NCBI RefSeq assembly: GCF_003258365.1
Contig: NZ_QHKM01000001.1
Coordinates: 434,001-498,000 of the forward strand
Source: Hymenobacter edaphi
GTDB taxonomy: Bacteria > Bacteroidota > Bacteroidia > Cytophagales > Hymenobacteraceae
DNA: 64,000 nt
Direction: 5' to 3'
Shown piece by piece: positions 8,011 through 59,734 of the stretch. Under the pieces are notes generated by a model. The model was not told where the DNA came from, made no database searches, and was given only the letters and a program-made list of their open reading frames with translations. How positions within the stretch are numbered: position 1 is the stretch's first letter; each line of letters starts with the position of its first letter. Both the position numbers and the translations under genes were made by a program.

Positions 8011-8144
8011 TAAGAAGCTAGGAGTCAGGAGTTAGGAGCTAGAATAGGGTGGCGCGGGGCCGCTCGGGAAGGGCAAGGCGGTGGCCGTCAGCCCCATTTT
8101 GGCTGACCTCCTAACTCCTTGCTTCTAGCTCCTAGCTTCTTCTA
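8011..8144. repeat. Intergenic inverted-repeat element A (AGGAGTTA/AGGAGCTA words)
   Basis: Left arm 8011-8042 repeats AAGAAGCTAGGAGTCAGGAG-like words; right arm 8107-8144 is the imperfect complement (CTCCTAACTCC, CTAGCTCCTAGCTTCTT). The GC-rich centre is unrelated. The right arm begins at the czcB stop codon (TAG, 8142-8144) and the left arm lies 10 bases before the czcA ATG, so the element fills the whole gap. Confidence 0.85.
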
Positions 8145-9248
8145 ATCATTCAGCTCGTCGTACACGAGCAGCTGGTTTTTGGCAATGATGACGTCGCCAT
8201 CCTTCAGGCCCGCGGCCACGTAGCTCACCGGGCCCACGGTCTTGGCTACCTGCACTGCGCGGGTTTCCACGTGCTGCCGGTCGCGGTACACCATCACGTA
8301 GTGGCGGTCCTTGTCGAAAATGACGGCCTCGGCGGGCACGGCCAGCATCCGGGCGTCCTCGGTGTTGAGCACGTTGATGCGGGCGTACATTTCGGGCTTG
8401 AGCAGGTAGCCGGGGTTGGGGAGGCGCACGCGCACCTTCATCACCTTGGCATCGGGGTCGAGCACGTTGAACACCTTGTCTATACGGCCCTGGAAGTGCT
8501 TGTCGGGGTAGGCCAGGGTGGTCACGTCGGCCTGGTAGCCCTCCTTCACCTTTGCAATGTCCGACTCAAACACGTTGGCCATAATCCACACGTCGTCGAG
8601 GTTCGACACGGTGAAGAGGTTCTGCACGTTGTCGGCGTTGAACTGCATGTGGTCGGTCACGTTCTTCTCCGTAATGAAGCCCGAAATCGGGGCCCGCAGC
8701 GTGTAGGTGCCGTCGGCCGAGACGCCGTAGATGCTCAGCTGCTTGCGCGACTTACCCACGTTGCTCTGGGCCTTTTGCAGCTCCTTGCGGGCCAGCGTCA
8801 CTTCCCGCTCCGAGGCCAGGCCGGCCTGAAACTGGTCTTCGGCCACCGCCAGGTTTTTGCGGGCAATGTCGAGGTCGGTGCCGGCGGTGCTGCTCTGGTT
8901 CTGTAGGTCGGCTATTTCGCCCGAGCGGATGACGGCCAGTACTTGGCCCTTCCGCACATGGTCGCCCAGCTCCACGTGGAGCTGCTCCACCACGCCGCCC
9001 ACCAAGGGGAATACCTGCACGGTTTTGTCGCCGTTGCCGGCAATCTGGCCCGATAGAGTCAGCTCGTTGCGCACCGGCTCGGCGCGCACCGTATCGAGCC
9101 GGATATCCTTCATCATCGTGTCGGACAGGGCGAAGGGCGCGGCCTCGGGTGCGGCGGGGGTGGCGTCGGTATCGGAACAGCTGCTGAGCAGGCCCGCGGC
9201 GGCCAGCGGAAACAGCAGGGCAGGAAGGGAGCGGGAGGAGCGAAGCAT
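8142..9248 (-). CDS. czcB: CzcB-type membrane-fusion lipoprotein of metal efflux
   Basis: 368 residues. Lipobox LSSC with Cys24 anchors it in a membrane. The chain shows the periplasmic-adaptor order: barrel-sandwich half (VFPLVGGVVEQLHVELGDHVRKG), an alpha hairpin (about 110-170, DIARKNLAVAEDQF), the second half-lipoyl block (TLRAPISGFITEKNV) and beta-barrel plus membrane-proximal domains. It bridges the RND pump and the outer-membrane channel. The GHxD-like metal chaperone extensions seen in some CusB proteins are not evident. It lies between czcC (gap 48 bases) and czcA. Confidence 0.9.
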   Translation of the reverse strand: MLRSSRSLPALLFPLAAAGLLSSCSDTDATPAAPEAAPFALSDTMMKDIRLDTVRAEPVRNELTLSGQIAGNGDKTVQVFPLVGGVVEQLHVELGDHVRKGQVLAVIRSGEIADLQNQSSTAGTDLDIARKNLAVAEDQFQAGLASEREVTLARKELQKAQSNVGKSRKQLSIYGVSADGTYTLRAPISGFITEKNVTDHMQFNADNVQNLFTVSNLDDVWIMANVFESDIAKVKEGYQADVTTLAYPDKHFQGRIDKVFNVLDPDAKVMKVRVRLPNPGYLLKPEMYARINVLNTEDARMLAVPAEAVIFDKDRHYVMVYRDRQHVETRAVQVAKTVGPVSYVAAGLKDGDVIIAKNQLLVYDELND

Positions 9249-9296
9249 GGCGGTATTGGTGAGGAGGCGCGCCGGGGGCGCTGGCGGTTGAATGAC

Positions 9297-10604
9297 TTAG
9301 TTGGCGGGCGTTAGCACGGGGCGGCCCACGGCGTAGTTGAGCTGCTCGTAGGCGCGGATGCGGTTGTTGCTGCGCTCATTGCGCTGCAGCAGGTTTTCCT
9401 TGTAGCTCTCGTAGAAGTCGAGGAACTCCACGATGGTGATGTTGCGCTGGGCGTAGCTGCGCTCGATGCCGTCGATGAGCTTGTCGAAATCGGCCGTGTT
9501 GCGGTCGGTGTTGGCCGACAGCTGCTCGGCCTGCTGGGCCAGCGTGTAGGCTTGGTACACTTCCTGGCGCACCTGCAGCTGCTGTTGCTGGAGCAGCGCC
9601 TGGCTGCCCTCCATCTGCGCCTTGGCCGTGCGGATATTGCCCTGGTTGCGGTTGAAGACGGGAATGGCCATGCCCAGGGTCACCGCGTTGTAGTTCTGGA
9701 TGTAGTTGCCGGCGCGGTCGTACACGTAGCCCACGGCCAGGTCCGGGGTGGCCAGGGCGTGCTGTAGGCGCAGGTTGGCCTGCTGCTGCTGCACCTGAGC
9801 GCGCCGGGCCCGCACGTCGGCCCGCACGTTCTGGGCCGAGTCGGCCAGGGCGGTTTCGCCCGGCGCCTGGGCCAGCGAGAGGGCCCGGATGGCGGCCACC
9901 GAGGCTTGGGGCAACAGGAAGGAGGCGGTTTCGTCGCGCAGCAGCACGTGCAGGTCGGCCTGGTCCTGGGTCATGTCGCGCAGCAGCGTCTGCCGCTCGG
10001 TTTCCAGGTCGAAAAGGAAGGCCTTGAGGCGCACCACGTCCTTCAGCGCGATGTTGCCCTTCTGGTACTGGCTTTCATACAGCCCGATGGTGCGGCGAAA
10101 TTCCGCAATCTGCCGGTCGTACACCCGCAGGCTCTGCTGCTTGAAGTACAGGTCGTAGAAGGTAGTGCGCAGCTGAAAGCGCAGCGTGCGCAGCAAGTCC
10201 TGCAGGTTGTACTGCTCGGCCAGGGCCTGCTGCTGGGCCACGTTGGCGGCGGCCTTGCGGCGCCCGGCAATGGCAAACAGCTGTTGCACCTGCACGATGC
10301 TGTTGCCCTGCTTGGTCACGTCGAGCACCCGGCGCGTCTGCGGGTTGTAGGTGTTCTGCTCGATGCTGATGGTGGGATTGTCCCACAGCCGCGCCTGCAG
10401 TATCTGCGCCTCCGCCGCCGACACGTTGTAGCGCTGGGCCAGCAGGGCGAAGTTCTGGTCGGCGAACTGCCGCTCGGCCTGCGCGAGGTCGAGGCGGGTG
10501 GTATCGGCGGGCGCCGGCAGGGCCGTCTGGGCGGCGGCCGTGGTGGCGGCCGTCAGCAGCAGGCCAGCGGCCAGGGAAAGAAAACGGAGCGAGGCACTAA
10601 GCAT
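9297..10604 (-). CDS. czcC: CzcC-type outer-membrane efflux channel (TolC superfamily)
   Basis: 435 residues from ATG 10604, with a signal peptide ending TAAAQ. Two long helical repeats typical of outer-membrane factors are visible (LDLAQAERQFADQNFALLAQRYNV near the start and the related pattern in the second half). An upstream TTG at 10625 was rejected. It starts the structural genes of the efflux operon and is preceded by an 11-bp-spaced repeat array (10646-10689) that may bind the response regulator encoded upstream. Confidence 0.88.
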   Translation of the reverse strand: MLSASLRFLSLAAGLLLTAATTAAAQTALPAPADTTRLDLAQAERQFADQNFALLAQRYNVSAAEAQILQARLWDNPTISIEQNTYNPQTRRVLDVTKQGNSIVQVQQLFAIAGRRKAAANVAQQQALAEQYNLQDLLRTLRFQLRTTFYDLYFKQQSLRVYDRQIAEFRRTIGLYESQYQKGNIALKDVVRLKAFLFDLETERQTLLRDMTQDQADLHVLLRDETASFLLPQASVAAIRALSLAQAPGETALADSAQNVRADVRARRAQVQQQQANLRLQHALATPDLAVGYVYDRAGNYIQNYNAVTLGMAIPVFNRNQGNIRTAKAQMEGSQALLQQQQLQVRQEVYQAYTLAQQAEQLSANTDRNTADFDKLIDGIERSYAQRNITIVEFLDFYESYKENLLQRNERSNNRIRAYEQLNYAVGRPVLTPAN

Positions 10605-10645
10605 TGTCGTCTGGTGAGTTGACAATGCAAGTGTACCGGCGCGGT

Positions 10646-10689
10646 ATTAGGGGGTGATTAGAGGTGGATTAGAAACGGATTAGAACCGG
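10646..10689. promoter_or_regulatory. Four 11-bp direct repeats, candidate response-regulator operator
   Basis: ATTAG occurs at 10646, 10657, 10668 and 10679, exactly 11 bases apart; units are ATTAGGGGGTG, ATTAGAGGTGG, ATTAGAAACGG and ATTAGAACCGG. OmpR/PhoB-type regulators classically bind direct repeats with 11-bp period. The array lies 42 bases upstream of the czcC ATG (minus strand). Its partner is inferred to be the regulator encoded at 12281-12961. Confidence 0.6.
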
Positions 10690-10782
10690 AATATTTTTTC
10701 AAGAAAGCGGCTCCCGGCGTTGCAAACGCCTGCCGGCGCCGGCCCGAAACTTCGCGTATTTTGCCGGCGGCCCCGCCGCCGC

Positions 10783-12153
10783 TCAGGCCGCTGGCCCAAA
10801 CACCACCTCCGCCACCGTGCCGCCGCCCGGCCGCGGCACGAGCGTGAGCTGCCCACCGTGCCGCCCGATGATGTTGCGCGCCAGCGGCAGCCCCACGCCG
10901 TGCCCCACCACGTGGCGCGAATTGTCGCCGCGGAAAAAGGGCTGAAACAGCCGGGCAAAGTCCTTTTCGGCAATGCCGATGCCCCGGTCGAGCACGTGCA
11001 GGCGCAGGGTGTGCGGAGCCGCGTACTCGAGGCGCAGCTCCACGCCTTGCTCGGCGGAGGAGTATTTCAGGGCGTTTTCCACCAGGTTGCTCACCGCCCG
11101 CCGCAGCAGCGCCCGGCTGCCGCGCACCACCAGCTGCTCGGCGTCGTCGGGCAGCTGGCCCAGCTGCACCTGCACCCGGCGCCGCTGCTCGGCGGGCAGC
11201 CCGTCGCGCACTTCCCACACCAGCTCGTCGAGGCGAATTTCTTCCTTGGGCAGCTCGGAAGCGTCGCCCTGGGCTAGCTCCAGCAGGTTGTTGACCAGCA
11301 CCCGAAACTGCAGCAGCTCCGTCAGCACCGAGCCCAGGGCCTCGCGGTAAGCCGGCGCGTCCCGTTCGCGCGCCATCAGCACCTGCAGCTCGCCGATGGT
11401 GGCCGTGAGCGGGGTGCGCAGCTCGTGGGAGGCGTTGCGCACGAAGGTGCCCTGGCTTTCAAAGGAGTCTTCCAGGCGCTCCAACATGCGGTTGAAGGTG
11501 CGGGCCAGGCGCGAAATTTCGTCGGGCTGCTCGTTGGGGCCCTCGTCGAGGCGCAGGTGCAGGTCGCGGGCCGTGATGCGGTCTGCCTGGTCGTTGATGT
11601 CGGCAATAGGGGCCAGGGCCCGGCCCGCAAACAGGCGCCCGGCCCCGTAGGTCAGCAGCAGGCTGATAACGAACACGGCCACCAGCGAAAGGGTCATGTA
11701 CTCGGTGCGGGCCTGGCCGGAGGCGTTTTCGGCCGCCGCCACGATGACAAACTCGCCCTGGTTGTCGCGGTAGAAAATGCCTACGGCCTGCCGCCGGCCC
11801 ATGGTGAAGAACACTTCTTTTTCGGCCACGATGCGCGCCAGCAGCGCCTCCGATACCTGCACCCGCTCGTCTTCCTCGATGAACGTGGGCTGCTTATGCG
11901 AGTCGTACACCTGCAGCACTTCGTTGGGCAGCGTCTGCATAAAGCGGCGCTGAAAGTCGCGGAAGGCATTGGCCCGCAGCTCGTCGCGCTCCAGGAAGAT
12001 ATAGCCCGTCACGTCGGCCCGGTCGCGCAGCCGGTCGTTGAACTGCTCGTGGGTGTAGTCGGCGTGGATGAGGAGCGTGGCCGACAGCGCCCCGAGCAGA
12101 ATCACGCCCACCAGGCCCACAAACAGCAGCGTAAGGCGGTTGCGGATGGTCAT
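10783..12153 (-). CDS. Sensor histidine kinase of the metal-efflux two-component system
   Basis: 456 residues from ATG 12153. Transmembrane helices at about 8-30 and 152-176 bracket a periplasmic sensor domain of about 120 residues. A HAMP domain follows (ALAPIADINDQADRI), then the phosphoacceptor box ASHELRTPL with His243 and an HATPase domain (NLVENALKYSS, DRGIGI, GVGLPLARNI). Architecture is that of CusS/CzcS kinases. The sensed metal is unknown. A 20-residue N-terminal extension would be translated from the repeat element and was rejected. The 178-base gap to czcC holds the 11-bp array and no other recognisable feature. Confidence 0.9.
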   Translation of the reverse strand: MTIRNRLTLLFVGLVGVILLGALSATLLIHADYTHEQFNDRLRDRADVTGYIFLERDELRANAFRDFQRRFMQTLPNEVLQVYDSHKQPTFIEEDERVQVSEALLARIVAEKEVFFTMGRRQAVGIFYRDNQGEFVIVAAAENASGQARTEYMTLSLVAVFVISLLLTYGAGRLFAGRALAPIADINDQADRITARDLHLRLDEGPNEQPDEISRLARTFNRMLERLEDSFESQGTFVRNASHELRTPLTATIGELQVLMARERDAPAYREALGSVLTELLQFRVLVNNLLELAQGDASELPKEEIRLDELVWEVRDGLPAEQRRRVQVQLGQLPDDAEQLVVRGSRALLRRAVSNLVENALKYSSAEQGVELRLEYAAPHTLRLHVLDRGIGIAEKDFARLFQPFFRGDNSRHVVGHGVGLPLARNIIGRHGGQLTLVPRPGGGTVAEVVFGPAA

Positions 12154-12285
12154 TCGGGTGAGATGGTGAAATGGTGATATAGTGAGTTGACGTCCTGGCG
12201 GCGCGGACGGCACACAAAGCTGCGGAAAAGCACAACCATCCGGCTGCGGGCGATATACGCTATTTCACCATTTCACCATTTCACC
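12154..12285. repeat. Intergenic inverted-repeat element B (GGTGAAAT words)
   Basis: Left arm 12157-12190 reads GGTGAGATGGTGAAATGG and onward; right arm 12261-12285 reads TATTTCACCATTTCACCATT and onward. It fills the gap between the response-regulator stop (TGA, which lies inside the arm at 12281-12283) and the kinase ATG (12153). Elements D and J use the same word. Confidence 0.88.
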
Positions 12286-12961
12286 GCTCATCTTCCCGCA
12301 TCACGTAGCCCATGCCCACCACGGTATGGATGAGCTTGGAGGGGAAGGGCTTGTCGACTTTGTTGCGCAGGTAGTTCACGTACACGTCGATGACGTTGGA
12401 GCCCGCGTCGAAGGAGTCTTCCCAGCTGTGCTCGGCTATTTCGGCCCGGCTCAGCACCCGGCCCTGGTTGCGCAGCAGCAGCTCCAGCAGCGCAAACTCG
12501 CGGGCGGTGAGCTTGAGCGGCTGCCCGGCCCGGGTCACGGTTTTGGCGGCCGTATCGAGGATCAGGTCGGCCAGGGCAAGGACGGCACCCTTCACCACGT
12601 GGCCGCGGCGGCGCACCAGGGCCCGCACCCGGGCCAGCAATTCCGGAAAGTCGAAGGGCTTGACCAGGTAGTCGTCGGCGCCGGCGTTGAAGCCTTCCAG
12701 CTTGTCGGTGGTGGTGCCCAGGGCCGTGAGCAGGAGCACGGGCACCTGCTGGTCGCGCTGCCGGATGGTTTTGAGCACCTCAAAGCCGCTCAGGCCCGGC
12801 AAAATCACATCGAGGATAATCAGGTCGAAGGCGTGCGAAAGGGCCAATCGGGCGCCGAAAGGACCGTCGTAGGCCACTTCCACGTCGAAATGCTCCTCCT
12901 CCAGCCCCTTGCGGATAAACGCCGACACCTTCGGCTCGTCCTCGACCAGTAGGATTTTCAT
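12281..12961 (-). CDS. OmpR-family response regulator of the metal-efflux locus
   Basis: 226 residues. The receiver domain has the acidic pair Glu7/Asp8, phosphoacceptor Asp51 and Lys101; the C-terminal winged helix (about 130-220) has the usual LTAREFALLELLLRNQG and VIDVYVNYLRNKVDK blocks. It most resembles CusR/CzcR regulators. It is the first gene of the minus-strand set, followed by its kinase. Its stop codon is the TGA inside element B. Confidence 0.92.
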   Translation of the reverse strand: MKILLVEDEPKVSAFIRKGLEEEHFDVEVAYDGPFGARLALSHAFDLIILDVILPGLSGFEVLKTIRQRDQQVPVLLLTALGTTTDKLEGFNAGADDYLVKPFDFPELLARVRALVRRRGHVVKGAVLALADLILDTAAKTVTRAGQPLKLTAREFALLELLLRNQGRVLSRAEIAEHSWEDSFDAGSNVIDVYVNYLRNKVDKPFPSKLIHTVVGMGYVMREDER

Positions 12962-12993
12962 AGGCGGGCTTGGGGTTAGTGCGTCGTCCGTGC

Positions 12994-13116
12994 TATGTAG
13001 CGCGAACCGCAGGTCGACGGGGGCAACTTGTAGTTCGCGAATCGTTGCTGACGTGCGGGCGTTACTTGTTCTGAAGCATCGTTCAACGATACGCGAAGCA
13101 GCGCTTCGCGCTACGG
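12994..13116. repeat. Dispersed repeat (AGCGCGAACCG...GGTCGACG family), copy 1
   Basis: AGCGCGAACCGCAGGTCGAC starts at 12999, with TAGTTCGCG internally and GCGCTTCGCGCTAC at the right end. A related copy in opposite orientation lies at 62450-62573. Both occupy intergenic gaps and have imperfect inverted ends. No coding potential is seen. The remainder of the 12962-13173 gap is otherwise unremarkable. Confidence 0.55.
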
Positions 13117-13173
13117 CGCACGCGGCCCGATCCGTCCATTGGTGACCTATTTGTTAGGCGTGCCGAATAAATT

Positions 13174-13515
13174 TTAGTCGTCCTCGTAGTCCAGCCCGAG
13201 CACGTTATTGAGGGCACCCTGCAGCTCCGAAGCAGCGTGCATCTGCCCGGCTTTGCGGGCCACGGTGAGGCCCGTACGCAGGATGTTTTCCGCCTCGTCG
13301 AGGTGGCCCTGTTCCTGCCGGAGCTTGCCGGCGTGGTAGTAAGTGCCCACGTAATCAGGGTGTTCCGTCAGAAGCTTCTGGTAGTACTGCCAGGCCGTGT
13401 CCACGTCGCCGGCCGAGCGGTACTCGGTGGCCAGCGCGTACACGGTAAAGGCGTCGGTCGGGTCTTCCTTATAGAAGGTGAGCAGTTGCTCCAGGCGGCT
13501 AGGTGCGGTTTCCAT
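13174..13515 (-). CDS. Small TPR protein
   Basis: 113 residues, no signal peptide. Two to three tetratricopeptide-like helical pairs are visible: DAFTVYALATEYRSAGDVDTA, then WQYYQKLLTEHPDYVGTYYHAG, then LRQEQGHLDEAENILRTGL. It is presumably a cytoplasmic protein-interaction module. It is divergent from etfB with 73 bases between starts. Confidence 0.75.
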   Translation of the reverse strand: METAPSRLEQLLTFYKEDPTDAFTVYALATEYRSAGDVDTAWQYYQKLLTEHPDYVGTYYHAGKLRQEQGHLDEAENILRTGLTVARKAGQMHAASELQGALNNVLGLDYEDD

Positions 13516-13531
13516 CGGCGGGATTTTCCAG

Positions 13532-13539
13532 TATCTTCG
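13532..13539 (+). promoter_or_regulatory. -7 element of etfB promoter (TATCTTCG)
   Basis: TATCTTCG differs from the Bacteroidota -7 consensus TAnnTTTG at one base and lies 49 bases before the etfB ATG. No clear -33 TTG was identified. Confidence 0.4.
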
Positions 13540-13588
13540 GCCCGAAATTAGGGCATTGCCCGCATCTTCTGACCCTTAAGTCGACCTG

Positions 13589-14329
13589 ATGAAGTTCCTC
13601 GTTTGCATTAGCAACGTCCCGGACACGACGACCAAAATCACGTTTACCCCGGATAATAAGGAGTTTAACAAGGCGGGCGTGCAGTTCGTCATCAATCCGT
13701 GGGATGAGTATGCACTCACTCGCGCTATTGAGCTCAAAGAAGCCCAGGGCAGCGGCACCGTCACGGTGCTCAACGTCGGGGAAGCCGACACCGAACCCAA
13801 CATCCGCAAAGCCCTGGCCATCGGTGCCGACGACGCCATCCGCGTCAACGCCGCCCCCAAAGATGCCTGGTTTGTGGCCCAGCAGATTGCTCATTACGCC
13901 AAGGAAGGCGGCTACGACGTTATCCTGATGGGCAAGGAAAGCATCGACTACAACGGCTTCCAGGTGCACGGCATGGTGGGCGAGTTGCTCGGCATCCCGA
14001 CGGTAGCCCCGGCCATGAAGCTGGACATGAGCGGCAACACCGCCACGCTGGAGCGCGAAATCGAAGGCGGCAAGGAAATCGTAGAGGTTGCGGCCCCGTT
14101 CGTGGCCAGCTGCCAGCAGCCGATGTGCGAGCCCCGCATCCCGAACATGCGCGGCATCATGACGGCCCGCACCAAGCCGCTGAAAGTGGTGGAAGCCGTG
14201 GGCGAAGGCGCCGCTACGGCCGTGGCCGAGTACCAGCTGCCGCCCAAAAAGCAGGGCGTGAAGCTCATCGACGCCGCCAATGCCGGCGAGCTGATCAAGC
14301 TGCTGCGCAACGAAGCCAAAGTCATCTAG
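13589..14329 (+). CDS. etfB: Electron transfer flavoprotein beta subunit
   Basis: 246 residues. N-terminal FLVCISNVPDTTTKI, INPWDEYALTRAIELKE and the AMP/nucleotide-fold block VILMGKESIDYNGFQVHGMVGELLGIP are typical. EtfAB takes electrons from acyl-CoA and other dehydrogenases and passes them to ETF:quinone oxidoreductase. It is followed by etfA with 126 bases between them, filled by element C. Confidence 0.95.
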   Translation: MKFLVCISNVPDTTTKITFTPDNKEFNKAGVQFVINPWDEYALTRAIELKEAQGSGTVTVLNVGEADTEPNIRKALAIGADDAIRVNAAPKDAWFVAQQIAHYAKEGGYDVILMGKESIDYNGFQVHGMVGELLGIPTVAPAMKLDMSGNTATLEREIEGGKEIVEVAAPFVASCQQPMCEPRIPNMRGIMTARTKPLKVVEAVGEGAATAVAEYQLPPKKQGVKLIDAANAGELIKLLRNEAKVI

Positions 14330-14453
14330 TTTAAGAGTTTATGGGTTTGTGAGTTAATGAGTTATTGTTCTTGCGTAGCGCAAGCCATGCTCATTGCTCC
14401 TGGATCCATATCCCTCCTTAACTCTTAAACTCCTCAACTCTCAAACTCAAACA
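14330..14453. repeat. Intergenic inverted-repeat element C (GAGTTTAA/TTGAGAGT words)
   Basis: Left arm 14330-14368 repeats GTTTAAGAGTTTATGGG-like words; right arm 14413-14453 has ACTCTTAAACTCC, CAACTCTC and AAACTC. It begins the base after the etfB stop and ends two bases before the etfA ATG (14456). Confidence 0.85.
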
Positions 14454-14455
14454 GC

Positions 14456-15433
14456 ATGTCTGTTCTCGTAGTAGTAGAATGCGATAAGGGCGAAGTGAAA
14501 AAATCTTCGCTGGAAGTAGCGTCGTACGGCGCGCAGGTGGCCCAGATGCTCGGCACCACGGCTACGGCCGTGGCGGTGGGCGAGGCCACCGAAGCCAACC
14601 TGGCCGCCCTGGGCGAGCAGGGCATCACGAAGGTGCTGTTCGACGCGGAGCCGCGGCTGAAGGACTTCGTCAACGGCGCGTACACCAAGCTGATTGCCGC
14701 CGCCGCCGACAAGGAGCAGGCCAAGGTAATCGTGCTGGCCAACTCGAACGTTGGCGCTTCGGTCGGCTCGCGCCTGGCGGTGCGTCTGAAGGCTTCGCTG
14801 GCCACCAACGTGGTGGAGCTGCCCAAAACCGACGGCGGCCAGTTCACGGTGAAGCGCGGCGCCTTCTCGGGAAAGGCCTTCGCTGATGTGACCCTGTCGG
14901 GCGACCGGAAAATCATTGCCGTTAAGAAAAACAGCATCGAAGCCCAGCACAACGGCGGCCAGACGGCCCAGGTGGAGCCGTTCACGGCCCAGCTGTCGGA
15001 TGCCGACTTTGCCGACGCGCCGAAGCAGGTTATCATGCAGGATCAGGCCGGGGGCATTCTACTGCCGGAGGCTGACAAAGTGGTATCGGGTGGCCGCGGT
15101 ATGAAGGGCCCGGAGAACTGGCACCTCATCGAGGACCTGGCCAAGGCGCTGGGCGCGGCTACGGCCTGCTCCAAGCCGGTGTCGGACGTCGACTGGCGCC
15201 CTCACCACGAGCACGTGGGCCAGACGGGCATCACCGTGTCGCCGAACTTGTATATTGCCTGCGGCATCTCGGGCGCCATCCAGCACCTGGCCGGCGTCAA
15301 CTCGTCGAAGGTTATCGTGGTCATCAACAAGGACCCCGAGGCTCCCTTCTTCAAGGCGGCCGACTACGGCATCGTGGGCGACGTGTTTGAGGTGCTGCCC
15401 AAGCTGACCCAGGCCGTAAAGGAACTGGGCTAG
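14456..15433 (+). CDS. etfA: Electron transfer flavoprotein alpha subunit
   Basis: 325 residues. The C-terminal FAD domain is clear: [55 protein letters not shown]. It pairs with EtfB. The ATG follows directly after the right arm of element C with no Shine-Dalgarno sequence, normal for this phylum. A terminator lies 20 bases past the stop. Confidence 0.96.
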
Positions 15434-15452
15434 CCGAGTGACTGCGCAACAG

Positions 15453-15495
15453 TGCGGGCGGGAAAAAATCAGCTAACATTTTCCCCCCGCCCGCA
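15453..15495. terminator. Terminator after etfA
   Basis: TGCGGGCGGGAAAA and TTTTCCCCCCGCCCGCA form an imperfect long stem, with AT-rich sequence on both sides of the loop, immediately downstream of the etfBA pair. Confidence 0.65.
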
Positions 15496-15552
15496 TTATT
15501 GCGTTAGAAGCAATTCAGTCACCCATCACCCATTCGCATACATTTCTCCCTC

Positions 15553-16194
15553 GTGAAGAAAATTCAGCTCGAAATTCTGGGCTTGTCCTCCAGCCAGTCG
15601 CAATCGGGGTCGTTTGCCCTGATTCTGGGCGAAAAGCACGGCAACCGCCGCTTGCCCATCATCATCGGCATGTTTGAGGCGCAGAGCATTGCCATCCAGA
15701 TCGAGAAAATCAACCCCAACCGCCCGCTCACGCACGACCTGTTCAAGTCGTTTGCCGAGCAGGTGCACGTAACTATCCTGGAAGTTCTGATTTCCGACCT
15801 CAAGGAAGGCGTGTTCTACTCCAAAATCGTGTGCTCCGACGGGGCCACCACGTTTGAGCTGGACTCGCGGCCTTCCGACGCCATTGCCATCGGCCTGCGC
15901 TTCGGCGTGCCGATTTACACGGTGGAAAGCGTGATGAGTGAAGCCGGTATCATCCTCTCCGACCTCGACGAAGGCGCTGAAACCGACGACGAGGACGATG
16001 ACGACGAGGACGACGACACCCCGAGCACCCCGCGCAGCGAGGTGGCCGAGCACAAGGAGCCCTCGGGCCAGGTGTCGCAGGAGGAGCTGACCAAGATGCT
16101 GGCCCAGGCCCTGGAACGCGAGGACTACGAGAAGGCCGCCAAAATCCGCGACGAGCTGAACAAGCGCGGCGACAAGGATAAAGGCCACGAATAG
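15553..16194 (+). CDS. Bifunctional nuclease (BFN/DUF151) family protein with C-terminal UVR motif
   Basis: 213 residues, GTG start at 15553. The N-terminal 130 residues are a DUF151 domain (LPIIIGMFEAQSIAI, RPLTHDLFKS, SRPSDAIAIGLRFGVPIY). An acidic linker of Asp/Glu (about 140-160) leads to a UvrB/UvrC-type motif (MLAQALEREDYEKAAKIRDEL). Plant and bacterial DUF151 proteins have reported RNase/DNase activity. The fusion with a UVR motif is common in this phylum. Cytoplasmic. Confidence 0.85.
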   Translation: MKKIQLEILGLSSSQSQSGSFALILGEKHGNRRLPIIIGMFEAQSIAIQIEKINPNRPLTHDLFKSFAEQVHVTILEVLISDLKEGVFYSKIVCSDGATTFELDSRPSDAIAIGLRFGVPIYTVESVMSEAGIILSDLDEGAETDDEDDDDEDDDTPSTPRSEVAEHKEPSGQVSQEELTKMLAQALEREDYEKAAKIRDELNKRGDKDKGHE

Positions 16195-16229
16195 CGGCCC
16201 GGCCGGCTGTTCCAGCCGTTCGATTCAGA

Positions 16230-16272
16230 AACACCACGGCCCGTTTCCGGTAAGGGGACGGGCCGTGGTGTT
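16230..16272. terminator. 15-bp hairpin terminator
   Basis: AACACCACGGCCCGT (16230-16244) and its exact complement (16258-16272) with a 13-base loop, 35 bases after the BFN gene stop. Confidence 0.7.
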
Positions 16273-16372
16273 ATCGTGTCGAGCAAGGCGAGCAACCAGG
16301 GTGAAAATAACCAGGCAGCATCCTGGCCCAGATGTCTTGCTTTGCTCGACCCGACAGGTTCGTTGGCCGCAA

Positions 16373-16400
16373 TTCCGTAGACTTGCGGCGCTTAATTTTG
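16373..16400 (+). promoter_or_regulatory. Promoter of the DinB-like gene (TTG ... TAATTTTG)
   Basis: -33 TTG at 16373-16375 and -7 TAATTTTG at 16393-16400, spacer 17. The -7 box ends only five bases before the ATG (16406), so the transcript may be leaderless or nearly so. Confidence 0.55.
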
Positions 16401-16405
16401 CCCCT

Positions 16406-16981
16406 ATGTCGACTCCCGAAACCCAGCCTGCCGCCGAGCAGGATCTGCGCTACCCCATCGGCCACTACCAGCTGCCCGAGCAGCCGCTGACGGCCGAGCA
16501 GCGCCACGGCTACATTCAGCAGCTGATGGCTTTGCCCACCGAGCTGCGCATGGCCCTCGACGGGCTCAGCGGGGAGCAGTTTGATACGCCCTACCGCCCG
16601 GGCGGCTGGACGGTGCGCCAGGTGCTGCACCACCTGCCCGACTCGCACGTGAACAGCTACACCCGCTTCCGCCTGGCGCTGACGGAGGACAACCCCACCA
16701 TCCGGCCCTACAACGAAGCCGCCTGGGCCCAGCTGCCCGACGTGACCATCGTGCCGCCCGACGTGTCGCTGATCCTGCTCGACGCGCTGCACGCCCGCTG
16801 GGTGGTGCTGCTCAGCCAGCTCACCGACGAGCAGTGGCAGCGCACCTGGTACCACCCGGAGTCGGAGCAGACGATTCGCCTCGATCAGGCCCTGGTGATG
16901 TACGCCTGGCACGGCCGACACCACATTGCGCACATCACCAGCCTGCGCAAACGCATGGGCTGGGGCAACTTTCAGCAGTAG
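16406..16981 (+). CDS. DinB/YfiT-like putative metal-dependent hydrolase (bacillithiol-transferase superfamily)
   Basis: 191 residues from ATG 16406; an upstream in-frame extension reads through the promoter and was rejected. The YfiT/DinB pattern is present: DLRYPIGHY at the N-terminus, PGGWTVRQVLHHLPDSHVN with the first metal histidine, and WHGRHHIAHI with the other two. Family members bind a divalent metal in a four-helix bundle and may transfer thiols. The in vivo substrate here is unknown. Confidence 0.85.
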   Translation: MSTPETQPAAEQDLRYPIGHYQLPEQPLTAEQRHGYIQQLMALPTELRMALDGLSGEQFDTPYRPGGWTVRQVLHHLPDSHVNSYTRFRLALTEDNPTIRPYNEAAWAQLPDVTIVPPDVSLILLDALHARWVVLLSQLTDEQWQRTWYHPESEQTIRLDQALVMYAWHGRHHIAHITSLRKRMGWGNFQQ

Positions 16982-17021
16982 GTAGAGCCCGGCGGCGGCG
17001 GCGCAAGCAAGCGGTTCACCT

Positions 17022-17217
17022 CGCTGTCATTGCGAGGCGCAGCCGTGGCAATCCTTCCTCCAGTAGAACCGCCGCTACAACGGGCACTACCCCAAGACGG
17101 CACCGCCCGAAACTGGTATCAGCAGTTTCGGGCGGTGCCGTTTTTGCTTTGTAGGCATTGCATCGGCGTCCCGTTGACCAGGACCGATTGCCGCGGCTGC
17201 GCCTCGCAATGACAGCG
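17022..17217. repeat. Composite palindrome (CATTGCGAGG outer arms, nested hairpin)
   Basis: Outer arms 17022-17053 and 17186-17217 are complementary over 32 bases with one mismatch (CGCTGTCATTGCGAGGCGCA...). Nested inside is a 17-bp stem, CGGCACCGCCCGAAACT 17098-17114 and 17124-17140, followed by TTTTTG, which should act as a terminator for the DinB-like gene. A second copy of the same design lies at 51015-51230. It fills the gap between two convergent genes. Confidence 0.85.
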
Positions 17218-17240
17218 GGTGCGGCCGTTGGCTCGTGCGG

Positions 17241-18047: not shown

Positions 18048-18050
18048 GTC

Positions 18051-18166
18051 ACAAGTGGTGAAATTGTGAGCTGGTGAACTGCTGAGTGTCGTTCTGGCTG
18101 CGCGAAATGCGTGGTCTGCGCCTCCCGAACGTCAACTCACCATTTCACCATCTCACTATTTCACCT
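18051..18166. repeat. Intergenic inverted-repeat element D (GGTGAAAT words)
   Basis: Left arm 18051-18084 (ACAAGTGGTGAAATTGTGAG...) and right arm 18133-18166 (CAACTCACCATTTCACCATC...). It lies exactly between the mlaE stop (18167) and the mlaF ATG (18047) and uses the same word as elements B and J. Confidence 0.88.
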
Positions 18167-18898: not shown

Positions 18899-18982
18899 AG
18901 TGAAGGCTGGCGAGAAAAAAATGAAACCGCCGGAGCGGGGCGGGCTTACATACGTACAAACCGCGAAACAATCTTACGCGAT

Positions 18983-19696: not shown

Positions 19697-19699
19697 GGC

Positions 19700-19780
19700 G
19701 AGTTTAGGAGGGTAGGAGTTTAGGAGTCATTATTCGATAACTCATGGACTCCTACCCCCATACCCTCTTACCCTATTGCC
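19700..19780. repeat. Intergenic inverted-repeat element E (GGAGTTTA words)
   Basis: Left arm 19700-19730 (GAGTTTAGGAGGGTAGGAGT...) and right arm 19744-19780 (ATGGACTCCTACCCCCATAC...). It joins two convergent genes; the stop of the GIN-domain gene (19773-19775) lies within the right arm. Confidence 0.75.
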
Positions 19781-22695: not shown

Positions 22696-22814
22696 CGTCA
22701 TGCTGAGCTTGTCGAAGCATCTCTACCGCTTCGTTAGATAGTAAAATCACTCGGCACGATATCCTGACAGAGCCAACGAAGCGGTAGAGATGCTTCGACA
22801 AGCTCAGCATGACG
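22696..22814. repeat. Perfect 40-bp inverted repeat inside the gld operon
   Basis: Arms 22696-22735 and 22775-22814 are exact reverse complements (CGTCATGCTGAGCTTGTCGA...), separated by 39 AT-rich bases. It begins four bases after the gldA stop. The motif CATGCTGAGCTTGTCGAAGC is a known type of dispersed intergenic repeat. A partial match (CTCATCCTGAAGCGTAGCCG) occurs at 31166. It resembles a REP/MITE-like mobile repeat. Confidence 0.88.
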
Positions 22815-28243: not shown

Positions 28244-28328
28244 GATGTGCGAATGTGCTTGAATGTGCTGATGTGCTAATTGGTCATTCTCATTAGCACA
28301 TCGGCACATTCAAGCACATTCGCACATT
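28244..28328. repeat. Intergenic inverted-repeat element F (GTGCGAAT words)
   Basis: Left arm 28244-28280 (GATGTGCGAATGTGCTTGAA...) and right arm 28292-28328 (ATTAGCACATCGGCACATTC...) pair over 37 bases with two mismatches and an 11-base loop. It starts five bases after the dnaN stop and ends eight before the gldC ATG. Confidence 0.93.
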
Positions 28329-30049: not shown

Positions 30050-30162
30050 AATTAAAAATCAAAAATCAAGAATGAAAAATCAGGCCTGAATAGCCTCCGC
30101 CAGCCCATTCCAGGGTTAGGGAGACGATTCATTTTTAATTTTTAATTCTCAATTTTTAATTG
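30050..30162. repeat. Intergenic inverted-repeat element G (AATTAAAAAT words)
   Basis: Left arm 30050-30084 (AATTAAAAATCAAAAATCAA...) and right arm 30131-30162 (ATTTTTAATTTTTAATTCTC...). The stop codon of the neighbouring gene (TAA, 30156-30158) lies inside the right arm, so the arm also encodes the last residues EIN. Confidence 0.83.
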
Positions 30163-42892: not shown

Positions 42893-42979
42893 AGGAGCTA
42901 GGAGTGAGAAGATAGAAGCCAGAAGGTGCCAAATCTGGCCAGCTGCTCCTATCTTCTCACTCCTAACTTCTAGCTCCTC
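42893..42979. repeat. Intergenic inverted-repeat element H (AGGAGCTA words)
   Basis: Left arm 42893-42921 (GGAGCTAGGAGTGAGAAGAT...) and right arm 42946-42979 (GCTCCTATCTTCTCACTCCT...). It ends four bases before the ATG of the next gene (42984) and uses words related to element A. Confidence 0.88.
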
Positions 42980-42983
42980 CTGC

Positions 42984-43289: not shown

Positions 43290-44000
<711 letters not shown>

Positions 44001-44090
44001 GCCCTGTCCAAAGCGGAATGAGCTTAACACAAAAGCGCCGTAGAATGGCTTGAACGGGGTGATTTTTGATTTTTACTTCTCCATTTCTAA

Positions 44091-44987: not shown

Positions 44988-45028
44988 TCGGGTTTTTCGG
45001 GGCTCATTCCGAGCGCAGCGAGAAATGA

Positions 45029-50986: not shown

Positions 50987-51014
50987 CACTGGCTGACGGC
51001 GCGGGTGGCCGTCC

Positions 51015-51230
51015 TTGCGAGCAACGCGAAGCAACCGCAGGAAGGCGTAGCCAATCGTTCCTTCAGCAGCACCGCCGCCGTAATGCCCTCCAACCGAAAA
51101 CAGCGCCGCCCGAACCTGCAGATACCAGGTTTCGGGCGGCGCTGTTATGGTTTTCTGCCAATTGGGCCTGTTGCGCCGAGAGGGGAACGATTGGCTACGC
51201 CTTCCTGCGGTTGCTTCGCGTTGCTCGCAA
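51015..51230. repeat. Composite palindrome with 47-bp perfect outer arms and nested hairpin
   Basis: Outer arms 51015-51061 and 51184-51230 are exact complements (TTGCGAGCAACGCGAAGCAA...). Nested is an imperfect 20-bp stem (AACAGCGCCGCCCGAACCTG 51099-51118; 51126-51146). A 9-bp tandem GCAATGACC (three copies) follows the right arm. It resembles the element at 17022-17217, in the opposite orientation. It fills the 321-base gap between two convergent genes. Confidence 0.88.
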
Positions 51231-51307
51231 TGACCGCAATGACCGCAATGACCGCAAGGACTGCCGGTGTGGCCGTGGTCGGCCGGCTGGCACCGCTGCT
51301 TTTCAGC

Positions 51308-55249: not shown

Positions 55250-55348
55250 TTGTTTTTATACAGAGGCGTGGAGAGACAGGCTCCGTGAAGCGCCGGCAAC
55301 CCCCGGGAACGTCCCGAACGGTGCCAAGTCCTGACCATATAAAAACAA
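55250..55348 (+). promoter_or_regulatory. SAM-I (S-box) riboswitch
   Basis: P1 is an 11-bp perfect stem, TTGTTTTTATA (55250-55260) with TATAAAAACAA (55338-55348). The core GAGGCGTGGAGAGACAGGCT, then CGTGAAGCGCCGGCAACC and CGGTGCCAAGTCCTGACC, is the SAM-I consensus. It binds S-adenosylmethionine. The only downstream gene in this direction is the APC permease 300 bases away, so SAM probably represses an amino-acid importer. No terminator/antiterminator pair is obvious before the ATG. Confidence 0.92.
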
Positions 55349-57294: not shown

Positions 57295-58221
57295 ATGCAA
57301 ACCGAACTGTCAGCTACCCCCGCCGCGCTGGGGACTACGGTCATTGAAGTTTTAGCCGCCGAAGCGCCGGCGCCACCCGCCCCCGCCCCGCCGGCTTACC
57401 CGACTTATAAGGAGAGCTGGCTGGCGCTGGGGTGGTTCCTGCTGGTGGCGCTGCTGGTGACGGCGGTGTTTTTCGGTGTGGCCAACCTGGCGGCCCTGCC
57501 GCCCCGCTATTCGCTGCTGGTTACGCTACTGGCCGGCGACGCGGCCAAGGCGCTCGTCGTAGTGTTTCTGACCTGGTACGTGGGGCGGGCGCGCTTGCGG
57601 CCGCTGCGGCTGCTGGCGCAGCGCGAGCGGCTGGGCGTGTACGCCGTGCTGCTGCTGGTGGCGGCGGCGCAGCTGCCGTTGCGGAGCCTGTTGCACCGAC
57701 TGGGCCTGCCCACCTGGGGGATGGATGCGGTGATTACCCGCATGGAGCAGTTTCCGCTGGCGGCTGCCTTTACTATCTGCGTGGCGGCGCCGGTATTGGA
57801 GGAGCTACTGTTTCGGGGCGTGCTGTTGCCGGGGCTGCTGCGCAACTACGGGCCCGCGCGGGCCATCCTGCAATCGGGCCTGGTGTTTGGCGTGTTTCAC
57901 CTCAACCCGGCCCAGGCGCTGAGCGCGGGCCTGCTGGGTCTGCTGCTGGGCTGGGTGTACTGGCGCACTGACTCTCTGCTGGCCTGCATGTGGCTGCATT
58001 TCCTGAACAATGCCGCCGCCTGGACGCTGGAGCAACTGCCCGCTTTCCGCCGCTACGATTCGGTGGCCGATCTGCTGCCCCGCGGCGGAGCCCTGGTTTT
58101 CACCTTAGCCGCGCTGCTGGGGCTGCTGGCCCTGGGTATCTGGTTGCTAGCTGGGCTCACGCGCCCAGCCCGCCGCGCAGCTTCTGCAGCAGCGGCTGCA
58201 CCTCCGGCACGGCCCGCGTGA
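57295..58221 (+). CDS. CPBP (Abi) family intramembrane metalloprotease
   Basis: 308 residues from ATG 57295. Membrane helices throughout; Glu169-Glu170 and Arg174 in EELLFRG, His202 in FGVFHLNPA and the last motif in HFLNN fit the CPBP family (intramembrane glutamic/metallo proteases). An Ala/Pro tail (about residues 288-308) overlaps the 3' end of the convergent flippase gene by 65 bases. The upstream gap (57116-57294) has a GC-rich palindrome at 57207-57242 and a TATCTTGC box. Confidence 0.85.
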   Translation: MQTELSATPAALGTTVIEVLAAEAPAPPAPAPPAYPTYKESWLALGWFLLVALLVTAVFFGVANLAALPPRYSLLVTLLAGDAAKALVVVFLTWYVGRARLRPLRLLAQRERLGVYAVLLLVAAAQLPLRSLLHRLGLPTWGMDAVITRMEQFPLAAAFTICVAAPVLEELLFRGVLLPGLLRNYGPARAILQSGLVFGVFHLNPAQALSAGLLGLLLGWVYWRTDSLLACMWLHFLNNAAAWTLEQLPAFRRYDSVADLLPRGGALVFTLAALLGLLALGIWLLAGLTRPARRAASAAAAAPPARPA

Positions 58222-59635
58222 ACAGCACCCCGGCGGCGTACACCACCGTCAGGGCCGCAGAGCGCAGCAGCATGGTCACGAACAACGAATGCACCGGGGG
58301 CACGAGCCAGCCCGCCAGCGCGGCCGCCCCGGCAGCGCCCAGGATGAGCCCGATGCGGTAATCGAAGGGCTGCAGGCGGTAGGCGTGCCACACAAACCAG
58401 GTGCGGGCCACGTTGATGCTCGTCAGCGCCAGCAGGGCGGCCCAGGCGGCGCCCACCATGCCCAGCGGCGGAATCAGCAGCAGATTCAGCCCCACCGTGC
58501 CCGCGGCCAGGGCCACGTTGAACACCAGATCGAAGCGGTAGCGCGGGGAGGTGACGACGATCAGGCCGTTGACGCCGGTAATGCCGTCGAGCAGGCGGCC
58601 GGCCAGCAGAATCCAGACGATGGTGGTGCCGGCGGCGTACTCGGGCTTCATCAGCGAGTAGATAAAGTCCAGGTTCAGGCCGATGCCCAGGGCCAGGTAG
58701 CAGCCCAGCACGGTGTTGAGGCGGGTGGTACGGCGGTAGAACTCGGCCATGCGGGCCATGTCCTGCTCCTTCCAGTAGTCGGCCAGCAGCGGAAAGGCAA
58801 TCTTGTAGAGCGAGCGGAACGGAATGGTGAGGGCCGTGCTGATGAAGAAGGCCGTGGTGTAGATGCCGGCGGCCTTCAGGTTCACCTTCGAGCCCACCAT
58901 CAGGGCGTCGATGGAGCTGATGACGGTGCCCGAAATATTGGAAAGCAGCGCAAAGGCCCCGAAGCTGAGCAGCTCGCGCACCGGCCGCACTTGCAGCGCC
59001 GCCCGCGTGGGCCGCAGGTGCAGCTCGCCGATGTAGGCCAGGTAGCCGGTGAGCAGCAAGGCGAGGACGCTGTTGACCAGGATGTAGGCCAGCACGAACT
59101 GGTGAAACGTGAGGTAGCCCAGCCCGAACAGCAGCGTGACGCCGGCAATGAGCACGCGCAGCAGCACTTCCTGCAAAAACGAGGAAAACGCGGTGTGATA
59201 GAGGCCCTTCAGGTAGGCATCCTGCAGCGAGTAGAGCAGGGTGAACAGGGCCAGCAGCGCGCACCAGCCGTAGTAGGGCCCGAGCAGGGCCGCGTCGGCG
59301 TCGTAGGCCCGCAGAATCAGCGGCCGGCCCAGCCAGTAGGCCAGCGAAATGACGGCGAAGCCGAGCATGGGCAGCCCCAGCAGCAGCGGCAGAAAGCCCT
59401 GGTGGCCGGCCTCCCGGTTGCGGAAATAGGGAAAGAAGCGGATGCCCGCGCTGGCGAAGCCAAAGGCCGCCAGCTGGGCGTAGATGGTGGCCAGGCTCAG
59501 CAGCACCCGCGTCAGGCCCACCTGGTCGGCCGCCAGGAAGCGCGGCATCAGCAGGGCCGTATTGACGAAGCCCAGCCCCAGCCCGAAGTAGGAAATAATG
59601 GTATTGCGCAGCCCCTGGCGCTGAACGATGCCCAA
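58157..59635 (-). CDS. Polysaccharide flippase (Wzx/MATE-like)
   Basis: 492 residues from TTG 59635, inside the edge of element J. Fourteen or so membrane helices; N-terminal RNTIISYFGLGLGFVNTALLMPRFL and LSNISGTVISSIDALMVG match polysaccharide biosynthesis flippases, which move undecaprenyl-linked glycans to the periplasm. Last gene of the minus-strand surface polysaccharide set. Convergent overlap with the CPBP gene. Confidence 0.88.
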   Translation of the reverse strand: MGIVQRQGLRNTIISYFGLGLGFVNTALLMPRFLAADQVGLTRVLLSLATIYAQLAAFGFASAGIRFFPYFRNREAGHQGFLPLLLGLPMLGFAVISLAYWLGRPLILRAYDADAALLGPYYGWCALLALFTLLYSLQDAYLKGLYHTAFSSFLQEVLLRVLIAGVTLLFGLGYLTFHQFVLAYILVNSVLALLLTGYLAYIGELHLRPTRAALQVRPVRELLSFGAFALLSNISGTVISSIDALMVGSKVNLKAAGIYTTAFFISTALTIPFRSLYKIAFPLLADYWKEQDMARMAEFYRRTTRLNTVLGCYLALGIGLNLDFIYSLMKPEYAAGTTIVWILLAGRLLDGITGVNGLIVVTSPRYRFDLVFNVALAAGTVGLNLLLIPPLGMVGAAWAALLALTSINVARTWFVWHAYRLQPFDYRIGLILGAAGAAALAGWLVPPVHSLFVTMLLRSAALTVVYAAGVLFTRAVPEVQPLLQKLRGGLGA

Positions 59636-59734
59636 ATGGTGAAATGGTGAAATGGTAAAATGGTGAGTGACGGCCTAGCGGCGTGGCTGTTGCCAGAACG
59701 ACAAACTCACCATTTCACTATTTCACCATCTCAC
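59633..59734. repeat. Intergenic inverted-repeat element J (GGTGAAAT words)
   Basis: Left arm 59633-59667 (CAAATGGTGAAATGGTGAAA...) and right arm 59704-59734 (AACTCACCATTTCACTATTT...). The deacetylase stop (TAG, 59718-59720) and its last codons (EMVK) lie in the right arm; the flippase TTG start lies at the left arm edge. Confidence 0.88.

What the first reader, a model, noticed from the sequence alone, without database searches (positions are those of the whole stretch)
8011..59734. A family of gap-filling inverted repeats with one architecture but different repeat words
Ten intergenic gaps are filled by imperfect inverted repeats made of a 7-12 base word repeated two to four times per arm: 8011-8144, 12154-12285, 14330-14453, 18051-18166, 19700-19780, 28244-28328, 30050-30162, 42893-42979, 43956-44092, 59633-59734. 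At least five unrelated words are used, yet the design is constant: the element starts at or within a few bases of one stop codon and ends within 0-10 bases of the next start (or stop) codon, with an unrelated central spacer. Nine of ten lie between co-directional genes. A shared architecture with unrelated sequence argues for a process that rebuilds the arms (for example repeat-word expansion plus arm correction) or for selection on RNA structure. I know of no name for this class.
Basis: partly seen in the sequence, partly recalled or inferred. Interest (0 to 1): 0.85.

Follow-up and report, generated by a model that had tools for sequence, protein, structure and literature searches.

The report
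Swappable word-built hairpins between operon genes
Many gaps between neighbouring genes in the bacterium Hymenobacter are filled from stop codon to start codon by a hairpin built of a repeated 7- or 8-letter word, and related species often keep a hairpin in the same gap while the word itself has been exchanged, which looks like a crowded, fast-turning set of tiny mobile repeats.

Summary
Nine of the ten elements beat shuffled sequence; E9 (43956-44092) does not. The host is a Hymenobacter. Word period is 7 or 8, arms about 32 nt. In 50-300 bp gaps of the genus, hairpins of any kind lie in 135/296 co-directional, 26/41 convergent and 0/68 divergent gaps. The main new result is in relatives. The etfB-etfA gap is 93-189 bp in 27 of 29 Hymenobacter-type loci, with different words in different species (ten families, at least 18 changes on the etf tree), but 1-5 bp in 19 of 19 Pontibacter-type loci. 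Against the sister species (etf coding 96.8% identical) the ten gaps have median identity 55.5%, divergent gaps 89%; hairpin occupancy is mostly kept. In this genome the GGTGARNT word belongs to a dispersed family with conserved inner ends, whose facing arms pair no better than arms dealt out at random, so pairing comes from sharing the word, not from arm copying. Best reading: several families of non-autonomous REP/MITE-like repeats with word-array ends replace one another in 3'-end gaps. No mobilising enzyme or clean empty site was found; selection for any hairpin is a serious rival.

The parts
8012..8141 (-). E1, word YAGRAGY (period 7), arms 8111-8141 and 8012-8042; between HlyD-type gene 8142-9248 and AcrB-type gene 4839-8000
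   Evidence: MFE z -4.8, arm score 38 vs shuffle max 28; Pfam
12157..12285 (-). E2, word GGTGARNT (period 8), outer arms 12260-12285 and 12157-12182; between response-regulator and histidine-kinase genes; covers the regulator's stop codon
   Evidence: z -5.9; arms; edge; Pfam
14330..14445 (+). E3, word GAGTTTAT (period 8), arms 14330-14361 and 14414-14445; between etfB and etfA
   Evidence: z -4.4; Pfam; ortholog gaps
18057..18165 (-). E4, word GGTGARNT, arms 18118-18165 and 18057-18103; between MlaE permease gene and an ABC ATPase gene
   Evidence: z -7.9; Pfam; ortholog gaps
19700..19767 (.). E5, TAGGAG/GAGTTTA-type words, arms 19700-19730 and 19737-19767; the only convergent gap of the ten
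   Evidence: z -4.6, arm score 30 vs shuffle max 20; not scored as occupied by the second criterion
28245..28327 (+). E6, word AATGTGC (irregular spacing), arms 28245-28280 and 28292-28327, 97% complementary; between dnaN and gldC
   Evidence: z -14.1; Pfam
30050..30154 (-). E7, word AATTAAA-type (period 7), arms 30128-30154 and 30050-30076; upstream of a dCTP-deaminase/dUTPase-like gene
   Evidence: z -5.0; Pfam
42893..42971 (+). E8, word YAGRAGY (period 7), arms 42893-42919 and 42945-42971; after the transaldolase gene
   Evidence: z -6.6; Pfam
43960..44090 (+). E9, AATTAAG/AATTTTTAATT-type words, arms 43960-43987 and 44063-44090; weakest; 5' arm lies in the end of the called ABC ATPase ORF
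   Evidence: not beyond shuffles: z -0.9, arm score 24 = shuffle max
59634..59739 (-). E10, word GGTGARNT, arms 59705-59739 and 59634-59668; upstream ORF (DUF7033) ends inside the arm
   Evidence: z -10.2; gap 94% identical in the sister species

Best explanation
The elements are copies of several families of short non-autonomous, REP/MITE-like repeats. Each is about 80-130 bp, with two inward-facing arrays of about four copies of one degenerate 7- or 8-bp word as its ends. Families spread by copying within a genome (shown for GGTGA: dispersed copies with common inner ends; probe abundance differs strongly between species). They persist on the 3'-end side of genes, in co-directional and convergent gaps, and almost never in divergent gaps (shown). 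In orthologous gaps one element is often exchanged for another family, including REP-type hairpins (shown as pattern). Exchange by insertion plus loss of the older copy, and an enzyme acting in trans, are inferred. The hairpin results mainly from the two ends carrying the same word (shown for the GGTGA family only). A mild benefit of having some hairpin at these 3' ends may help to keep one copy (inferred).
For: Dispersed family: 61 hits of a two-word probe in this genome, 0 in the reversed control. 40 parses (39 distinct elements; one of L166 is a second parse) with four words in 32 left and 28 right arms and opposite inner-end types in 28 of 40. Abundance: GGTGAAAT x3 gives 94 hits here, 122 in G003, 61 in G016, 30 in G006, 27 in G001, 0-2 in the other 21 of 26 genomes; GCACATTAG x3 gives 104 in G016, 0 here. 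Orthologous exchange. Exchange stops at the codons: E3 flanks 97-100% identical over 30-150 nt (the first 39 nt of etfA identical). Mixed or nested gaps, read by eye (L080 E1, L084 E1, L088 E2, L095 E3). At 47399 a GGTGA element in G003, decayed in G001 and absent here, supplies the gene's stop codon. G016 cassettes: word arms outside, REP-type arms inside, terminator-like hairpin innermost in 4 of 16 stretches viewed, inner sequence shared by three loci. Periodic arms average 39% G+C; the window is 64.8%.
Against: No target-site duplication or clean filled/empty pair was shown. No enzyme: Y1_Tnp (PF01797) has 0 matches in G001, G006 and G008, which carry the words, and the one copy here is flanked by other palindromes. 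Occupancy is kept more than free gain and loss would give: co-directional/convergent gaps here versus sister are both 16, neither 16, one only 6. Exact stop-to-start replacement is hard to get by plain insertion. The concentric order words > REP > terminator is not what random nesting predicts. L080 and L096 etf arms differ at the same word position in all five words of both arms, which looks like concerted change. Inner-end conservation was tested in one family only; the few TAGGAGT copies viewed show no obvious common inner end.
Confidence: 0.5

Rival explanations
1. Selection for an RNA hairpin of any sequence between cistrons (mRNA processing, 3'-end protection, or insulation of neighbouring ORFs); the sequence is free, so families replace each other.
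For: Occupancy kept while sequence is lost; word and REP-type hairpins swap at one site (L094, L095, L097, L099); 0/68 divergent gaps of 50-300 bp and 0/30, 0/24, 0/23 in three orthologous divergent gaps; gap length of 60-160 bp in 29 of 31 at etf and 22 of 25 at mlaE-F.
Against: No element-specific pairing in 35 GGTGA elements (p 0.23); many gaps hold no hairpin that passes (etf 23 of 30 pass, mlaE-F 11 of 24); other gaps vary widely in length (15434, 16195, 22693, 23600); Pontibacter-type relatives do without at etf; selection for a hairpin does not call for 7/8-bp words.
Confidence: 0.25
2. In-place rewriting: arrays turn over by slippage or conversion within the hairpin and the other arm is corrected, so words drift in concert at a fixed site.
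For: Exact stop-to-start replacement; L080 and L096 differ at one word position in 5 of 5 words of both arms; long tandem runs of one word; 19 of 48 hairpin-chosen elements pair in register; small pairing excess at GGTGA word position 7.
Against: Flat similarity at lags 7, 14, 21; neighbouring words less alike than shuffled (10 identical vs 18.8 expected, p 0.008); GGTGA copies dispersed with common inner ends; no overall compensation in that family.
Confidence: 0.15
3. The words are tandem binding sites for a protein (DNA or RNA), the inverted arrays being two facing platforms; word families follow different proteins.
For: Word core conserved, two or three positions free, about four words per arm; MacGregor 2015 proposes S1, Csp or Csr proteins for heptamer TAACTGA arrays (PMC4679880, abstract).
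Against: Ten families at one site and replacement by REP hairpins without words; no candidate protein tested here.
Confidence: 0.07
4. Ordinary intrinsic terminators or chance inverted repeats.
For: Strong terminator-like stems do occur in convergent gaps at 17096-17142 and 28762-28792; E9 is no better than chance.
Against: In the two stretches scanned (8000-20000 and 28000-45000, which hold E1-E9) one weak terminator-like site (30082-30096, 5 pairs) lies inside an element (the scan allows loops of 3-8 only, so long-loop hairpins cannot score); shuffles reject chance for nine of ten.
Confidence: 0.03

Closest known systems
REP repeats of the GTAG and CGTC super-families (PMC3733652, abstract and passages) and REPINs (PMC3116915, passages)
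   Same: Dispersed, palindromic, mostly between unidirectional or convergent ORFs and close to 3' ends; REPINs are two inverted arms with a spacer; CGTC repeats occur in Bacteroidetes and are said to lack a dedicated transposase.
   Different: Arms here are arrays of a 7/8-bp word with free positions; several word families per genome; no GTAG/CGTC tag seen on the word elements; tight stop-to-start fit; family exchange between species at fixed gaps.
TAACTGA heptamer direct repeats of Beggiatoaceae, Cyanobacteria and five Bacteroidetes (PMC4679880, abstract, passages, sections 9 and 12)
   Same: Intergenic arrays of a 7-bp word, with stop codons in one reading direction.
   Different: Direct repeats (one indirect repeat in the main genome), mostly just upstream of start codons; here inverted pairs of arrays, many words, filling the gap from stop codon to start codon.
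Cyanobacterial STRR heptanucleotide repeats (recalled; seen here only as a term in search listings)
   Same: Short tandem 7-mers in intergenic DNA (recalled).
   Different: Not compared here.
BrickBuilt MITE of Porphyromonas gingivalis (PMC4596501, abstract and outline)
   Same: Tandem repeat inside a miniature inverted-repeat element, always intergenic.
   Different: 23-bp repeat unit between leader and tail parts that carry small inverted ends; here the 7/8-bp words are the ends.
Dimorphic microdiversity loci of bacterial genomes (PMC2884548, passages)
   Same: One segment replaced by another at a fixed locus, some of them palindromic units.
   Different: No shared architecture; here the replacements keep arms, length class and edges.

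Membership tests
REP/REPIN | Dispersed extragenic palindromes in many copies, favouring co-directional and convergent gaps | tested here: met
   own GGTGA copies 16 co-directional, 4 convergent, 1 in a called divergent gap, 19 not placed
REP/REPIN | GTAG or CGTC tag at one end | tested here: not met
   Read by eye from the word elements; no tag scan was run. CGTC-type starts do occur in the separate GTCATNCTGAGC repeats
REP/REPIN | RAYT (Y1 transposase) flanked by the same repeat | tested here: not met
   One Y1_Tnp here, flanked by other palindromes; 0 matches in G001, G006, G008; Y1 flanks in other genomes were not viewed
MITE | Short, non-coding, terminal inverted repeats, multiple copies | tested here: met
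MITE | Target-site duplication and a parent transposon with the same ends | tested here: inconclusive
   Two presence/absence gaps aligned show no clear duplication; no parent transposon was sought beyond Y1_Tnp
TAACTGA/STRR heptamer repeats | Tandem 7-bp words | tested here: met
   37 of 54 periodic elements have best period 7 or 14, 13 have 8, 4 other (two of the 54 are repeats of one element each)
TAACTGA/STRR heptamer repeats | Direct, not inverted, arrays upstream of start codons | tested here: not met
   Arms inverted by construction of the set; 5' arm median 3 nt from the stop codon
Known structured RNA (Rfam 15) | Match at gathering score | tested here: not met
   Only small SRP 41969-42072 and SAM riboswitch 55253-55345 in the window
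Intrinsic terminator | Compact GC stem followed by a T run | tested here: not met
   for E1-E9, one weak site inside E7; scan limited to loops of 3-8; E10 not scanned

The most novel reading that the evidence does not exclude
Word hairpins are a self-renewing class of sequence: at a fixed gap all words of both arms change in concert (as L080 versus L096 at etfB-etfA, the same position in 5 of 5 words of each arm) while position and architecture persist, because some process or co-evolving factor reads the word rather than the locus.
Probability: 0.15. Interest if true: 0.88.

Novelty: new variant of a known kind. Interest (0 to 1): 0.66.

Why it matters
Gaps between neighbouring genes of conserved pairs (etfB-etfA, mlaE-ATPase, dnaN-gldC, regulator-kinase) have had their content exchanged wholesale between sister species while the coding flanks stayed, at etfB-etfA, 97-100% identical. 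That is a very fast-turning kind of bacterial intergenic DNA with a fixed architecture. It gives a natural experiment, one gap with ten or more different fillings, so 'any hairpin will do' versus 'selfish repeat' can be tested directly. It also links REP-type palindromes and tandem heptamer repeats, which the papers seen here treat apart.

Tried and rejected
RAYT as the mover: only one Y1_Tnp here, with other flanks, and three genomes with words have none. Stop-codon cassette (words closing all three frames from either side): only a modest excess, 2.0 vs 1.81 +- 0.06 frames closed, all three 0.33 vs 0.21 in shuffles, and several words (GTTGCCA, GGTTTTT, TGCTTGG) hold no stop; kept as a side effect, though 8 of 21 placed GGTGA copies hold a neighbour's stop codon. 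Purine bias of the 5' arm: mean 0.58, above 0.5 in only 38 of 54. Alternating words (period 14 better than 7): not real, lags 7, 14 and 21 are equal. Plasmids as carriers: the E2 region gave 8 hits, all over its response-regulator part, E8 gave none; BLAST masks simple repeats, so this is weak. Import of the gap with its flanks from another species: flanks stay sister-like at the gaps that could be compared; ungapped flank comparison failed on a side of seven gaps (9249, 10605, 16982, 30043, 47399, 57116, 61029), one of them E7. Intrastrand-triplex repeats: the paper's passages seen name none of the groups asked for. Literature for this class: searches; only the top 2-20 rows of each listing were seen (one search had none), and none describes it in Hymenobacter.

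Limits: gene calls are my own codon-score calls, not annotation, and etfA was first called 39 nt short, so the E3 gap (identity part) holds 39 conserved coding bases. Word families and nested gaps were assigned by eye. Sets chosen by hairpin favour pairing. Hairpin criteria differ. L093 was mis-parsed at etf (506 nt). Two of the 54 periodic elements and one of the 40 parses are repeats. Of 22 GGTGA places without a locus, 20 were fetched.
Full report
What was checked. I called genes by codon score and named flanking genes by Pfam. Nine of the ten inverted repeats beat 200 dinucleotide shuffles in folding energy (z -4.4 to -14.1) and 100 shuffles in arm alignment; E9 does not (z -0.9). By a second, gap-limited criterion in that call E5, E9 and E10 are not scored as occupied. 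Nine gaps are co-directional, one convergent. Gene pairs include HlyD/AcrB, response regulator/kinase, etfB/etfA, MlaE/ATPase and dnaN/gldC; that some of them form operons is inference from gene order, no transcript data were seen.

How general. I took the window plus 29 loci around etfA (28 titled Hymenobacter, one Solirubrum; about 5-21 kb each). In gaps of 50-300 bp, hairpins beyond 20 shuffles occur in 135 of 296 co-directional, 26 of 41 convergent and 0 of 68 divergent gaps; 32 and 1 of these hairpin gaps also pass a tandem-word test. In 19 loci of Pontibacter, Rufibacter, Adhaeribacter and Botryobacter the hairpin figures are 23 of 83, 12 of 18 and 0 of 26. So hairpins of any kind avoid divergent gaps, and most are not word hairpins. 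Two exceptions are known to me: a 383-bp divergent gap here (36224-36606) passes the laxer test, and one own GGTGA copy falls in a called divergent gap. In a wider set of 439 co-directional or convergent gaps, 219 had a hairpin, and 54 of these had arms periodic beyond all 60 shuffles: best period 7 in 16, 14 in 21, 8 in 13, others in 4. The 5' arm starts a median 3 nt after the stop codon; median arm 32 nt, loop 33. In 36 period-7 elements letter identity is 0.69 at lags 7, 14 and 21 and 0.17-0.31 at other lags up to 24; in 12 period-8 elements it is 0.65, 0.63 and 0.55 at lags 8, 16 and 24. So words look like equal draws from one degenerate word rather than a slippage ladder.

The same gap in relatives. 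At etfB-etfA (80 loci) the 29 Hymenobacter/Solirubrum loci have gaps of 93-189 bp in 27, 25 bp in one (L087), and one mis-parsed (L093). The 19 Pontibacter-type loci have 1-5 bp in all 19. Of the other 32 loci a few also hold inverted words by eye (L127, L128, L129, L131, L133). In 30 orthologous gaps 23 pass the hairpin test. Words differ between Hymenobacter species: AATTATG, AGAACTT, GAGTTTAT, GAGTTAT, GAGACAT, GGTTTTT and more, plus REP-type palindromes in L094, L095, L097 and L099; L084 and L098 could not be classed. On a tree of etfBA coding DNA (35 rows) twelve labels need 21 changes (least possible 11; shuffled mean 24.8, as low in 1 of 200); without unclassified and empty rows ten families need 18. 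At mlaE-ATPase, 25 species carry 12 labels with 13 changes, and ten classified families in 19 species need 10, so that gap keeps its families more along the tree; 11 of 24 pass the hairpin test there. Lengths of 60-160 bp hold for 29 of 31 at etf and 22 of 25 at mlaE, but other co-directional gaps vary more: 15 of 32 at 15434, 14 of 23 at 22693, and 11 of 21 under 30 bp at 23600.

Sister comparison. Window and L126 share etf coding DNA at 96.8%. Between window and G003 the ten gaps have median identity 55.5% (46-94), eight divergent gaps 89% (74-100; p 0.0014), and 14 hairpin-free co-directional or convergent gaps 80.5% (48-95; p 0.08, not significant). Hairpin occupancy in co-directional and convergent gaps is both 16, neither 16, one only 6. 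At E3 the flanks are 97-100% identical for 30-150 nt on each side of a different filling; at E6 92-97% and at E8 90-99%. E10 (94%) and E4 (71%) kept their family.

Anatomy of one family. Forty GGTGA parses (39 distinct elements) came from 50 own-genome loci chosen by a two-word probe, so decayed copies are under-sampled; a three-word probe finds 94 sites. The word is RGTGARNT with positions 6 and 7 free; 32 left and 28 right arms have four words. Inner ends are of opposite type in 28 of 40 parses. Neighbouring words are less alike than shuffled (identical 10 vs 18.8 expected, p 0.008). Facing words match 6.64 of 8 letters against 6.52 +- 0.07 for shuffled partners; position 7 alone shows an excess, p 0.004. 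Dealing whole right arms among 35 elements gives 0.822 +- 0.009 against 0.829 observed, p 0.23, and with G-U pairs p 0.29. So pairing comes from sharing the word. In the hairpin-chosen mixed set 19 of 48 pair better than with permuted words, so this is not universal. Of 21 copies with called neighbours, 16 lie in co-directional, 4 in convergent and 1 in divergent gaps, and 8 hold a neighbour's stop codon in the arm; 19 could not be placed.

Spread and composites. Probe counts differ strongly between genomes. Reversed-pattern controls are 0 in all 26 genomes for GCACATTAG; for GGTGAAAT they are 0 except 15 in G001 and 1 in G003; for the AT-rich GAATTATG they reach 22 in G004 and 17 in G015, above the true counts there (4 and 4), so that probe is only telling where it is far above control, as in G003 (66 vs 2), G005 (55 vs 1) and G016 (51 vs 0). 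In 16 G016 stretches picked from probe hits, four (L236, L238, L239, L240) show word arms outside, REP-type arms inside and a terminator-like hairpin innermost; inner sequence is shared by L237, L238 and L240. In this genome three GGTGA copies (L009, L013, L173) enclose a terminator-like hairpin.

Mechanism. Shown: dispersal of the GGTGA family, site preference, exchange at orthologous gaps bounded by codons, pairing by shared word in that family. Inferred: movement by an enzyme in trans, loss of the old copy at each exchange, and a possible mild benefit of having one hairpin. Not found: enzyme, target duplication, clean empty site. The concerted one-letter difference between L080 and L096 (5 of 8 left-arm and 5 of 11 right-arm differences fall on one word position) is left unexplained.

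Standing against what is known. It works like REP/REPIN or MITE families, but the GTAG/CGTC tag (by eye) and the RAYT link were not met, so I do not file it as a REP. It shares 7-bp words with the TAACTGA repeats (PMC4679880), but those are direct arrays near start codons. The literature searches (open-licence PMC papers only, top rows of each listing) showed no account of this class in Hymenobacter.

Noticed in passing
window 22696-22814, 51008-51237, 16998-17241: Long REP-type palindromes (CGTCATGCTGAGC... and TCATTGCGAGC...). At 22696 the sister species has another palindrome family; at 16998 the arms enclose a terminator-like hairpin that G003 and G001 also have; at 51008 they enclose a second inverted repeat.
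   Followed up: partly
L160 1256-2060 (G000:C41 near 41082): A lone RAYT-like Y1 transposase gene flanked by long inverted copies of an ACGAGTC/GGGAGTC palindrome, perhaps a REP family of its own.
   Followed up: no
window 41969-42072 and 55253-55345, + strand: Small SRP RNA and a SAM riboswitch aptamer by Rfam.
   Followed up: no
L236, L238, L239, L240 (G016): Russian-doll cassettes: word arms outside, REP-type arms inside, terminator-like hairpin innermost, in that order in these four of the 16 stretches viewed.
   Followed up: partly
L246; G000:C1:91515-91625; L088 response-regulator gap: Long tandem runs of one word (about 9 to 17 copies); in the last two no matching second array was seen.
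   Followed up: no
L080, L093, L095, L096 at etfB-etfA: Similar word pattern with G (L080, L093) or A (L096) at one position of the words; L095 keeps an outer-arm remnant beside a REP hairpin.
   Followed up: partly
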